Positions 41,284 through 44,206 of a stretch of DNA of 64,000 bases are shown in pieces (the first letter of the stretch is position 1; the number at the start of each line of letters is the position of its first letter). Both the position numbers and the translations under genes were made by a program. Source of the DNA: Pseudorhodoferax sp. Leaf274 (lineage in GTDB: Bacteria; Pseudomonadota; Gammaproteobacteria; Burkholderiales; Burkholderiaceae_C); assembly GCF_001422445.1 (NCBI RefSeq), contig NZ_LMNA01000006.1:71106-135105 (forward strand), written 5' to 3'. A model generated the notes under the pieces. The model ran no database searches and had not been told where the DNA came from. It was given only the letters and a program-made list of their open reading frames with translations.

Positions 41284-43764
41284 TCAATTGCGCAGGGGCT
41301 TGCCGGTGTTCAGCAGGCCCAGGATGCGCTCCTGCGTCTTGGGGTGCACGATCAGCGCGCAGAAGGCCTGGCGCTCCAGCGCCATCAGGTACTCCTCATC
41401 GACCAGCGTGCCGGCGTCGACATCGCCGCCCGTCACCACGCCGGCGATCAGGCCGGCAATGTGGAAGTCGTGCTGGCTGATGAAGCCGCCGTCGCGCATG
41501 TTCACGAGCTGCCCCAGGATGGTGGCCTTGCCATTGCGGCCGGCCACGGGGAACTGGCGCTTGAGCGGCGGGCGCCAGCCGGCGTTGGCCATGGCCTTGG
41601 CCTCGGCCAGCGCCACGTAGAGCAGCTCGTCCTTGTGCGGCACGACGATGTCCGCATCGAGCAGGTAGCCCAGCTTGCGGCTCTCCAGCGCGCTGGTGCC
41701 GACCTTGGCCATCGCCGCTGCCGTGAAGCCTTCGGAGACGAACTTGAGCAGGTCCTTGTCGGTCGAGGTGGCCGCGTTCTCGGCCGCGCGGCGCGCGATG
41801 TAGGTCAGGCCGCCGGCGCCCGGCACCAGGCCCACGCCGACTTCGACCAGGCCGATGTAGCTCTCCATGGCCACGACGCGGCGTGCGCTGTGGATGGCCA
41901 GCTCGCAGCCGCCGCCCAGCGCCAGGCCGCGGATGGCCGAGACCACGGGCACGCCGGCATAGCGCAGGCGCAGCATGGTCTGCTGCAGGAAGCCCTCGGC
42001 ATCCTCGATGGCGGCCACGCCCACGGCCATGAAGGCCGGCAGCATCGCCTGCAGGTCGGCACCGGCCGAGAACGGCTCGTCGCCGGACCAGACCACCAGG
42101 CCCTGGTAGTCCTTCTCGGCCAGATCGACGGCCTGCATCAGGCCTTCGGCCACCTCGGGGCTGATGGCGTGCATCTTGGTCTTGATGCTGGCAATCAGCA
42201 CCTCGCCGTCCAGCGTCCACAGGCGGACCGACGCATCCTCGTGCACCGTGGTGCCGGCCTTCGCGAAGCCCTGGGCTCCGTCGCCCAGCACGCCTTCGGG
42301 GAACAGCTGGCGCGCGTGCACGGGCAGCCGGCGCAGCGGCTCGAAGCGGCCCGTCGTCGGGTTGAACGATCCCGCAGGGGTGTGCACGCCGCCGGCCTCG
42401 GCCACCGGACCTTCGAACACCCACTTCGGCAGCGGCGCGGCCGACAGCGCGCGGCCGGCGTCGATGTCTTCCTGCACCCATCGGGCCACCTGCAGCCAGC
42501 CGGCCTCCTGCCAGAGCTCGAACGGGCCCTGGCGCATGCCGAAGCCCCAGCGCATGGCGAAGTCCACGTCGCGCGCGGTGTCGGCGATCGACGCGAGGTG
42601 CACGGCCGCGTAGTGGAAGCTGTTGCGCAGGATGGCCCACAGGAAGCGGCCCTCGGCGCCCTCGGCTTCGCGCAGCAGCTGCAGGCGCTGTGCGGCGGGC
42701 TTCTTCAGCATGCGCTCGTAGACGGCATCGGCCTTGCGGCCGGCCGGCACGTAGTCGCGGCTCTCGGGCTCGAAGCGCAGCACGTCGCGGCCGACCTTCT
42801 TGTAGAAGCCGGCCTTGGTCTTCTGGCCCAGGTTGCCGAGCTCCAGCAAGGCCTTGAGCGCGGGCGGCGTGGCGAAGCTGGCATAGAAGGGATCGGTCTC
42901 GGCGCTGAGCGTGTCCTGCAGCGTCTTCACCACATGGGCCATGGTGTCCAGGCCCACCACGTCGGCCGTGCGGAAGGTGCCCGAGGAGGCGCGGCCCAGC
43001 TTCTTGCCGGTGAGGTCGTCCACCACGTCGTAGGTCAGGCCGTGGTTCTCCACTTCCTTGACCGTGGCCAGCATGCCGGCCACGCCGATGCGGTTGGCGA
43101 TGAAGTTGGGCGTGTCCTTGGCGCGCACCACGCCCTTGCCCAGCGTGCTCGTGACGAAGGTCTCCAGGTCGTCGAGCACCTGCGCGTCGGTGGCCGGCGT
43201 GGGGATCAGCTCGACCAGCTGCATGTAGCGCGGCGGGTTGAAGAAGTGGATGCCACAGAAGCGCGGCGCCACGGCGGCCGGCAGGGCCTCGCCCATCTTG
43301 GTGATCGACAGGCCGGAGGTGTTGGACGCCACGATGCTGTGCGCCGCCAGGTGCGGCGCGATCCTGGCGTACAGGTCCAGCTTCCAGTCCATGCGCTCGG
43401 CAATCGCCTCGATCACGAGGTCGCAGCCGGCCAGCAGGCCCAGGTGTTCCTCGTAGTTGGCCGGCTGGATCAGCGTGGCCTCGTCGGCCACGCCGAGCGG
43501 CGAGGGCTTGAGCTTCTTGAGGCCTTCGATGGCCTTGAGCGCGATGGCGCTCTTGGGGCCCGCGCCGCCGCCGGGCCGCCCCAAGGCGGCGCCGGCCCCC
43601 TCGGGGGGCAGCGAACCTCGCGAAGCGGGGAGCGTGGGGGCATCGTTTGCGGGCAGGTCGAAGAGGACGACCGGCACGCGCACGTTGACGAGGTGCGCGG
43701 CGATCTGCGCGCCCATGACGCCGGCGCCCAGCACAGCGACCTTCTTGATTCTGAATTTCGACAT
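41284..43764 (-). CDS. Fused 3-hydroxyacyl-CoA dehydrogenase / enoyl-CoA hydratase, with in-frame repeat insertion
   Basis: This 826-residue bifunctional enzyme carries out the hydration and oxidation steps of fatty-acid beta-oxidation. The NAD-binding domain comes first: VAVLGAGVMGAQIAAHLV with GAGVMG at residues 13-18, then SNTSGLSI and GIHFFNPPRYM. The hydratase domain is C-terminal (about 540-760), with SGDEPFSAGADLQAM and GLALGGGCELA. Residues 40-70 are a Gly/Pro/Ala-rich stretch that begins right after the FDLPA strand and does not belong to the family. It is encoded by an extragenic-type repeat (43554-43641), and the normal sequence resumes at KSAIALKAIEGL. The insertion follows the second beta strand, where the NAD ribose is bound. 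Confidence 0.9.
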   Translation of the reverse strand: MSKFRIKKVAVLGAGVMGAQIAAHLVNVRVPVVLFDLPANDAPTLPASRGSLPPEGAGAALGRPGGGAGPKSAIALKAIEGLKKLKPSPLGVADEATLIQPANYEEHLGLLAGCDLVIEAIAERMDWKLDLYARIAPHLAAHSIVASNTSGLSITKMGEALPAAVAPRFCGIHFFNPPRYMQLVELIPTPATDAQVLDDLETFVTSTLGKGVVRAKDTPNFIANRIGVAGMLATVKEVENHGLTYDVVDDLTGKKLGRASSGTFRTADVVGLDTMAHVVKTLQDTLSAETDPFYASFATPPALKALLELGNLGQKTKAGFYKKVGRDVLRFEPESRDYVPAGRKADAVYERMLKKPAAQRLQLLREAEGAEGRFLWAILRNSFHYAAVHLASIADTARDVDFAMRWGFGMRQGPFELWQEAGWLQVARWVQEDIDAGRALSAAPLPKWVFEGPVAEAGGVHTPAGSFNPTTGRFEPLRRLPVHARQLFPEGVLGDGAQGFAKAGTTVHEDASVRLWTLDGEVLIASIKTKMHAISPEVAEGLMQAVDLAEKDYQGLVVWSGDEPFSAGADLQAMLPAFMAVGVAAIEDAEGFLQQTMLRLRYAGVPVVSAIRGLALGGGCELAIHSARRVVAMESYIGLVEVGVGLVPGAGGLTYIARRAAENAATSTDKDLLKFVSEGFTAAAMAKVGTSALESRKLGYLLDADIVVPHKDELLYVALAEAKAMANAGWRPPLKRQFPVAGRNGKATILGQLVNMRDGGFISQHDFHIAGLIAGVVTGGDVDAGTLVDEEYLMALERQAFCALIVHPKTQERILGLLNTGKPLRN
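43554..43641. repeat. GC-rich extragenic-type repeat inside a coding sequence
   Basis: This stretch reads as a chain of short inverted repeats: GGGCCGCCCC, GGCGGCGCC, CCCCCTCGGGGGG, CTCGCGAAGCGGGGAG and GTGGGGGC. The wording matches, from memory, a repeat family scattered between genes in Comamonadaceae. In this window it lies wholly within the dehydrogenase/hydratase gene and keeps its frame. A related piece occurs near 58007, on the opposite strand. Confidence 0.75.
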
Positions 43765-43777
43765 GTTCTTTCCTTGT

Positions 43778-44206
43778 TCAGGGCTGGCGCAGCCAGGTCT
43801 GGGTGCGCCAGAACGGGCCGATGGAGCCGCGCACCTCGAGCTTGGCACCGCCCTCGATGGGCGTGAGCCGCAGCGTGTAGACCTTGCCGGACTCGGGGTC
43901 GAGGATCCTGCCGCCTTCCCACACGTCCTTGCCCTCGGCCTTCTTCGCGCCGCGGATGATCTCCAGGCCGACCAGGGGCTGGTCCTTGCGGTCGTCGGTG
44001 CATTCGGTGCAGCGCGCCTGCGGATCGACCTCCTTGCGCAGCAGCTTCTCGATGCGGCCGCTGAGCTGGCCGCCCTGCTCGGCGATCTGCATCTGCGCCT
44101 TAGCCTCGCCGGTCTTGTCGTCCACGCTGTGCCAGCGGCCCACGGGCGTCATCTGCGCGTGCGCGGCCAGGCCGCACAGCAGCAATGCGAGCGGCAGCAG
44201 CCTCAT
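43778..44206 (-). CDS. DUF2147 secreted protein
   Basis: This 142-residue protein has a signal peptide of about 18 residues (MRLLPLALLLCGLAAHAQ). The mature part has the DUF2147 pattern: TPVGRWHSVDDKTGEAKAQMQI, GQLSGRIEKLL, CTECTDDRKDQPLVGLEIIRG, and YTLRLTPIEGGAKLEVRG. It is a periplasmic, lipocalin-like fold of unknown role. It sits inside the beta-oxidation operon, overlapping the acyl-CoA dehydrogenase gene by four bases (ATGA), and similar placement is seen in other members of the order. It might bind a fatty-acid-like ligand, which is inference. Confidence 0.85.
   Translation of the reverse strand: MRLLPLALLLCGLAAHAQMTPVGRWHSVDDKTGEAKAQMQIAEQGGQLSGRIEKLLRKEVDPQARCTECTDDRKDQPLVGLEIIRGAKKAEGKDVWEGGRILDPESGKVYTLRLTPIEGGAKLEVRGSIGPFWRTQTWLRQP

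What the first reader, a model, noticed from the sequence alone, without database searches (positions are those of the whole stretch)
43554..43641. Extragenic-type repeat inserted in frame in the NAD-binding domain of a beta-oxidation enzyme
The 3-hydroxyacyl-CoA dehydrogenase/enoyl-CoA hydratase gene carries about 30 extra codons (residues 40-70, rich in Gly, Pro and Ala) directly after the FDLPA strand. The family, as I recall it, continues from FDLPA with a short Lys/Glu-Gly-Pro linker into the KxAIxLKAIEGL helix. The DNA of the insertion is a chain of short inverted repeats with the wording of a GC-rich repeat found between genes across Comamonadaceae. The frame is kept and the rest of the protein looks intact. 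Mobile repeat DNA that becomes part of an essential-looking metabolic enzyme, beside its cofactor site, is rare and could show how such repeats move.
Basis: partly seen in the sequence, partly recalled or inferred. Interest (0 to 1): 0.75.

Follow-up and report, generated by a model that had tools for sequence, protein, structure and literature searches.

The report
Mobile repeat inserted into conserved enzymes
A short mobile DNA repeat, normally found between genes, sits in frame inside a fat-burning enzyme here, and the same repeat has entered many other conserved enzymes of related bacteria, often at the same place in different genera.

Summary
Window 43560-43641 is a copy of an ~84-bp GC-rich repeat with at least 49 matches in this genome. 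It adds 27 codons after the second NAD-domain strand of a 3-hydroxyacyl-CoA dehydrogenase/enoyl-CoA hydratase; the frame is kept. Three of the six species held of the genus carry it; three have the empty site. It is not a lone event: the same codon position is filled in nine species outside the genus and empty in most relatives examined.

The repeat lies in frame at 26 distinct positions that I examined, including ValS, DapC, UvrA, RecQ, TrpE and an RND pump with 1, 3 or 6 tandem copies. The three strongly basic frames are nearly absent (5 of 73 hairpin readings). In this genome 33 of the 35 other clusters abut a stop codon, and congeners have empty sites at all 12 loci checked. One hairpin covaries strongly.

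The closest known element is the beta-proteobacterial repeat element, BRE, whose paper gives copies inside genes one sentence; sequence identity with it could not be tested. The closest analogue is the Rickettsia palindromic element. Recurrent insertion fits best; allele exchange is not excluded. No mobilising enzyme was found.

The parts
43560..43641 (-). copy of the ~84-bp GC-rich repeat (BRE-like), read in frame d over all three hairpins: APTLPASRGSLPPEGAGAALGRPGGG
   Evidence: 49 matches in own genome; alignment of 49 copies; frames
43561..43647 (-). 29 codons (residues 40-68) standing where empty orthologues have 2 codons (KE); net +27 codons
   Evidence: filled/empty comparison within the genus
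43555..43599 (.). hairpin 1 region: arms 43555-43576 and 43578-43599 as reported by the repeat finder; the covarying stem closes on a conserved 15-nt loop GCCGGGCCGCCCCAA, here 43570-43584
43596..43608 (.). hairpin 2: C-run/G-run CCCCCTCGGGGGG
   Evidence: read from the sequence; aligned; not tested for covariation
43614..43640 (.). hairpin 3: AACCTCGCGAAGCGGGGAGCGTGGGGG
   Evidence: read from the sequence; aligned; not tested for covariation
41284..43764 (-). host gene: 3-hydroxyacyl-CoA dehydrogenase/enoyl-CoA hydratase, 826 aa; Pfam 3HCDH_N (two stretches), 3HCDH, ECH_1

Best explanation
The insertion is a copy of a non-autonomous, hairpin-forming repeat of about 84 bp that is, or recently was, mobile in this genus and family. 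It mostly settles where a gene's stop codon meets the next gene's start. Copies inside genes are found where the frame is kept and where the peptide is not one of the three strongly basic frames; most read as Gly/Pro/Ser/Ala-rich, near-neutral loops. These are likely disordered, so the enzyme tolerates them. The same loop of this enzyme was probably invaded several times. Shown: repeat identity, frame, empty sites, recurrence at the site, frame bias. Inferred: tolerance and activity of the protein, the number of independent insertions, and selection as the cause of the bias. The mechanism of movement is unknown.
For: Repeat identity: 49 own-genome matches. Frame and empty site: 3 of 6 species of the genus filled, 3 empty. 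Recurrence: 13 of 112 tree rows filled (two of them the same Tibeticola sequence), needing 10 changes, at least 7 forced by starred branches; one clade of the filled rows rejected (p-AU 5e-64, 12 of 109 rows). Young insert: over 51 between-genus pairs the insert core differs at 12% of third positions, the flanks at 28-35%. Generality: 26 in-frame positions, hosts named by NCBIfam for most. Frame bias: at 26 positions x 3 hairpins, 73 readings were clear, and 68 are in frames a (35), d (17) or c (16); the strongly basic frames b, e and f have 5. Consensus net charge is +1, +1 and +2 for a, d and c, and +5 to +9 for the others. Recent mobility: all 12 intergenic loci compared have at least one congener with the empty site. 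AlphaFold2: residues 40-68 have pLDDT under 50, between a strand (32-35) and a helix (73-84).
Against: No transposase or other mover was identified. A Y1 transposase gene is in 292 of 399 family genomes, but 18 of the 20 Y1-less genomes that one search lists carry the repeat. Short duplications at the insertion point were consistent at only 5 of 12 intergenic loci. In FadB of the genus an apparent 5-8 base overlap (GGCCC) could come from the C-rich repeat end; other coding sites show none. The three filled alleles of the genus share one junction although they do not form a clade (p-AU 0.00035), which allele exchange explains as well. Two of the five covariation measures do not stand out from shuffles. 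No expression or activity data exist here.
Confidence: 0.7

Rival explanations
1. One filled allele arose once and spread between species and genera by homologous recombination of the gene.
For: The filled FadB inserts resemble the G047 insert at 91-96% over 75-93 bp, mostly better than other copies in their own genomes do. Third positions in the 60 and 240 bases downstream are somewhat closer between filled alleles than between filled and empty ones (0.284 and 0.297 against 0.357 and 0.352). Within the genus three species share the same junction without forming a clade.
Against: Upstream third positions show no such closeness (0.350 against 0.363). Two copies in UvrA of G075 are as close to the G047 FadB insert (95%) as the FadB insert of G075 is (96%). 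The junctions differ between groups of genera.
Confidence: 0.3
2. A single ancient insertion was inherited vertically and lost many times.
For: Rhodoferax sp. BLA1 has PDNKSPSK at the site, which looks like a remnant; Tibeticola has a shortened insert.
Against: Insert third positions are much less diverged than the flanks (12% against 28-35%). Losses would have to restore the short linker in most lineages (81 of 113 loci have a 7-residue linker).
Confidence: 0.07
3. The repeats are REPs moved by a RAYT (Y1) transposase.
For: A Y1 gene is present in 11 of 13 repeat-bearing genomes, in one copy in 10 of them; in G001 a repeat copy lies next to it.
Against: 18 of the 20 listed Y1-less genomes carry the repeat, and 17 of the 20 listed repeat-less genomes have Y1. 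Only 1 of 12 Y1 loci has a copy within about 3 kb.
Confidence: 0.08
4. Ordinary linker drift or an assembly error that looks like the repeat.
For: The loop tolerates other, unrelated short inserts in other lineages.
Against: Repeat identity, three species of the genus and nine outside it with the same insert, and the same repeat in many other genes.
Confidence: 0.01

Closest known systems
BRE, beta-proteobacterial repeat element (BMC Genomics 2011, 12:207, PMC3110155; section 14 read; first author Hot, recalled)
   Same: About 90 bp (75-91), GC-rich, tandem with few or no bases between copies, mostly between genes, some inside coding sequences, in Comamonadaceae and Bordetella.
   Different: Section 14 does not analyse frames, sites or hosts of the coding copies. 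Its sequences are in a supplement that could not be opened, so sequence identity is not shown.
Rickettsia palindromic elements, RPE (Ogata et al. 2000, 2002; seen only through passages of PMC10969869)
   Same: Palindromic repeats found in frame in unrelated conserved genes.
   Different: In Alphaproteobacteria, about 150 bp; no sequence was compared. Recurrence at one codon in several genera and coding tandem arrays in a pump are not mentioned in those passages.
Enterobacterial RU-1, RU-2, RU-3 (PMC2759123, passages read; author Delihas, recalled)
   Same: Intergenic repeats with open frames, fused in frame to other reading frames.
   Different: Longer (103-168 bp), other hosts; described mostly in loci other than large conserved enzymes.
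REP/RAYT systems (PMC3116915, PMC2817692: search listing only)
   Same: Short palindromic intergenic repeats; a Y1 transposase gene in most host genomes here.
   Different: No positive association with Y1 found; the stem arms vary freely here.

Membership tests
BRE | full length about 75-91 bp | tested here: met
   single intergenic copies add 83-86 bp at six of nine single-copy loci, 78-85 at L140, 75-78 at L147 and 55 at L132, whose downstream flank differs; coding copies 81 or 84 bp each, DapC 84 or 87
BRE | GC-rich, above genome average | tested here: met
   mean 79.4% over 49 copies against 70.9% for the window; the paper gives 69.0% for Bordetella copies against 67.7% for the genomes
BRE | tandem copies with few or no bases between | tested here: met
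   arrays of about 84-bp period, e.g. L127, L159, L241
BRE | mainly intergenic, some within genes, in Comamonadaceae | tested here: met
   35 of 41 clusters outside, 6 inside genes; named hosts of the FadB copy include Xenophilus and Tibeticola
BRE | sequence identity to the published Bordetella copies | not testable with these tools
   sequences only in a supplement; the genomes searched are unnamed
RPE | sequence homology to Rickettsia elements | not tested
   no RPE sequence compared; works like, not filed as
RPE | in-frame insertion in unrelated conserved genes | tested here: met
REP/RAYT | repeat occurs with a cognate Y1 transposase | tested here: not met
   18 of the 20 listed Y1-less genomes carry the repeat; 17 of the 20 listed repeat-less genomes have Y1 (20 shown of 107 and 74)

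The most novel reading that the evidence does not exclude
A beta-proteobacterial mobile repeat is a family-wide source of protein loops: it inserts repeatedly at preferred codons of core enzymes, selection removes the strongly basic frames, and some copies expand as coding tandem repeats in an efflux pump, so that loop length evolves by mobile DNA. The same-codon recurrence would then reflect target preference as well as tolerance.
Probability: 0.4. Interest if true: 0.85.

Novelty: new variant of a known kind. Interest (0 to 1): 0.7.

Why it matters
In-frame mobile repeats in core enzymes are known mainly from Rickettsia, with scattered cases elsewhere. Here the same thing appears in a large family of mostly free-living bacteria, with natural filled and empty alleles in sister species. 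That makes it possible to ask directly how often such insertions occur, why they land at the same codon, and whether a 27-residue mobile loop beside a cofactor site changes an enzyme.

Tried and rejected
Folding energy: the window copy does not fold better than shuffles on either strand (z 0.53 and -0.52), so only covariation supports structure. Six open frames: true for 19 of 49 copies, against 614 of 3000 random window 82-mers and 566 of 1960 shuffles, so little beyond GC content. Openness does not explain the frame bias: of 41 copies a, b and c are open in 32, 32 and 35; e and f in 34 of 36 and 34 of 38; d in 22 of 31, with 18 minus-strand readings unassigned. My first count said that all in-frame copies use frames a or d throughout. 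A recount per hairpin showed this for the central hairpin only (17 a and 6 d of 26; RecQ of G256 reads c, ValS is shifted, the MsbA-type copy is unreadable there); hairpin 1 is often read in frame c. Rfam: one hit far below its gathering score (43300-43900 only). PDB: no significant match to the insert peptide (best E 0.19). Literature: four peptide strings are in no held paper; a five-term search asking for four terms gave none; the name BRE or bprJ1 is in one held paper. Quasi-palindrome template switching could also keep the arms complementary; not separated here.

Rows dropped and biases: L291 (1250-1294) of G047 was flagged in frame by the script but its right flank does not score as coding, so it was not counted; two flagged stretches of L298 are one TrpE site; FadB of G256 was missed by the script and added by hand. 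The G256 and G047 stretches were the best matches to a coding copy, so their in-frame share (7 of 20 clusters; 9 sites among 26 clusters) is biased upward. In one search L104 (same organism as L043) and L089 were left out, L043 was too short to pair, and I set L029 and L100 as one genus. L114 was left out of the trees; L104, L107 and L110 also. One search used 32 distinct copies whose right arm does not begin GCAAGC; the other class has an internal loop. Of 14 intergenic loci picked for empty sites, L137 (wrong frame) and L151 were not searched. One search stopped with an error and one search matched no rows through my pattern; one search replaced them. How often any intergenic point lies within 18 nt of a stop was not computed.

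Full report
What is there. The gene at 41284-43764 (minus strand) encodes an 826-residue 3-hydroxyacyl-CoA dehydrogenase/enoyl-CoA hydratase. After the strand ending FDL (D36 at 43657-43659), residues 40-68 stand where empty orthologues have KE. The DNA of 43560-43641 is a copy of a repeat with 49 matches in the own genome, a lower bound because 40 of 120 candidates were scored. The 49 aligned copies average 79.4% GC, against 70.9% for the window. I call the element BRE-like, after the beta-proteobacterial repeat element.

Anatomy. Copies from 40 fetched stretches align as three hairpins in series. In the first, a 15-base loop (GCCGGGCCGCCCCAA) is conserved while the arms change freely. On 32 distinct copies, 85.0% of cells pair against 59.3% in shuffles, 89 cells have changes on both sides against 29.9, and the covariation score is 0.676 against 0.200 (0 of 500 shuffles as high for each). 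Sliding the partner by 1-3 columns gives at most 0.168. Two further measures do not stand out: 9 pairs with changes on both sides against 7.6 (51 of 500 as high) and 27 pair types against 25.1 (113 of 500). The copies are related paralogues, so the shuffle contrast is not a probability. Template-switch correction of imperfect palindromes could give the same pattern. Folding energy alone is not unusual.

Where the copies sit. Of 41 clusters found in this genome, 6 are inside genes and in frame. Of the other 35, 33 have a stop codon of a neighbouring gene within 18 nt of the element; the two exceptions are partial alignments. For 12 of these 35 I fetched congeneric sites, and each has at least one congener with the empty site. 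At L129, L131, L142, L145 and L153 a short stop/start sequence (3-11 bases, such as ATGA, TGAGC or AATGAGCG) stands on both sides of the element but once in every empty site compared; at L128 and L149 against only one of two; at L132, L134, L140, L147 and L150 at most one base. In FadB of the genus an overlap of 5-8 bases (GGCCC) appears, which the C-rich repeat end could give by chance; the RND permease and DapC show none. In four clusters (L125, L130, L160, L163) a copy just after an ATG may extend the N-terminus of the next gene; these are not counted as internal.

Same enzyme, other species. In the genus, G000, G002 and G003 are filled and G001, G004 and G005 empty. G002 and G001 are sisters, and a clade of the three filled genes is rejected (p-AU 0.00035). 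By group code these include at least six other genera. On a tree of 112 rows without the insert, 13 filled rows need 10 changes, of which starred branches force at least 7. The rows are best matches of three searches, two of which used a filled query, so these are not frequencies. Sixteen rows have other, unrelated short inserts in the same loop, so the loop is permissive.

Age and origin. Over 51 between-genus pairs of filled genes the insert core differs at 12.2% of third positions; the flanks differ at 35.0% upstream and 28.4-29.7% downstream. Filled and empty genes of different genera differ at 36.3% and 35.2-35.7% (950 pairs). The insert is thus younger than the divergence of its hosts, or more constrained. 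Upstream flanks show no sign of shared ancestry of filled alleles; downstream flanks are somewhat closer, which leaves room for allele exchange. I favour repeated insertion, with some exchange between close species.

Other hosts. In-frame copies were found at 26 distinct positions: the FadB-type enzyme, DapC, RND adaptor, MdtB-type RND permease, a sugar-type ABC ATPase and an MsbA-type ABC exporter in G000; biotin carboxylase, threonine aldolase, KdpB (two), RecQ and an AlkA-like protein in G256; a GNAT/FemX-like protein (my label; NCBIfam gave none), TrpE (tandem), PgmG, a GlcD-type oxidase, UvrA (two) and a TIGR00275 FAD enzyme in G047; ValS, three further UvrA positions (one in G329, two in G075), CobQ (two) and a spermidine-synthase-like protein elsewhere. 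CobQ and the spermidine-synthase-like name are my reading of the sequence; several NCBIfam matches are below their cut-offs because the model is split or the gene cut. Some positions are filled in more than one genus: ValS in G156, G028, G047 and G074; DapC in G000 and G028; the RND permease in G000 (3 copies), G003 (1), G329 (3) and G092 (6); its adaptor in G000, G193 and G329; RecQ in G005 and G256. Net gains are 84 bp (G003) and 252 bp (G000) in the permease, and 84 or 87 bp in DapC by the relative compared.

Frames. I name frames on the consensus: a (..APSGGSEPREAGSVGA), b, c on one strand and d (APTLPASRGSLPPEGA..), e, f on the other. For one genome per position and each of three hairpins, 73 of 78 readings were clear: a 35, d 17, c 16, and b, e or f 5. 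Over the central hairpin 17 of 26 are a and 6 are d; RecQ is c in G256 but a in G005, ValS is shifted there, and the MsbA-type copy cannot be read. Hairpin 1 is read in frame c at 13 positions. The consensus peptides of a, d and c have net charge +1, +1 and +2 and no aromatic or Cys residue; b, e and f have +5 to +9. The frames are open about equally often in the copies, d somewhat less. I read this as selection against basic inserts. The frames were not named beforehand, and positions in one protein are not fully independent, so I give no probability.

The protein. An AlphaFold2 model from 30 sequences has mean pLDDT 79.1; residues 40-68 are below 50, and ten-residue blocks 31-40 and 71-80 average 80 and 85. 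The insert is therefore likely a disordered loop. That D36 contacts the NAD ribose is recalled knowledge of the family, not tested.

How it moves. Unknown. A Y1 transposase gene occurs in 292 of 399 family genomes, but 18 of the 20 Y1-less genomes printed carry the repeat, 17 of the 20 repeat-less genomes printed have Y1, and only 1 of 12 Y1 loci has a copy close by. The repeat is in 325 of 399 family genomes and in 40 of 399 drawn from the order, in 12 family groups, some by short matches only; two candidates per genome were scored there, so these are lower bounds.

Known or new. PMC3110155 (section 14 read) named the BRE: about 90 bp, GC-rich, tandem, in Bordetella and Comamonadaceae, and says that some are entirely within coding sequences. 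Length, composition, arrangement and hosts fit; the sequence could not be compared. Rickettsia palindromic elements are the nearest analogue (PMC10969869, passages), and enterobacterial RU elements another (PMC2759123, passages). In the searches I saw no held paper that describes frames, sites or recurrence of BRE inside genes; most subscription papers are not held. I file it as a new variant of a known kind.

Noticed in passing
G000:C12:36913-37162 (L159); G092:C28:272510-273010 (L241); L179; L193: Coding tandem repeats of 84 or 87 bp in an MdtB-type RND permease: 3, 6, 1 and 3 copies in different species.
   Followed up: partly
L305, L177, L188, L182: UvrA carries in-frame copies at five different positions among three genera, two each in G047 and G075.
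   Followed up: partly
L020, L032, L106, L108, L112, L117 and others: Unrelated short Gly/Ala/Ser-rich inserts occupy the same FadB loop in other lineages.
   Followed up: no
L030 (Rhodoferax sp. BLA1): PDNKSPSK at the FadB site looks like the remnant of a deleted copy.
   Followed up: no
L125, L130, L160, L163: Copies just after an ATG could add a repeat-coded N-terminus to the next gene (a prepilin-like and a MurI-like protein among them).
   Followed up: no
G000:C2:47173-47457 and orthologues (L199-L210): A Y1 (RAYT-like) transposase gene, mostly single-copy, is widespread in the family without positive association with the repeat.
   Followed up: yes
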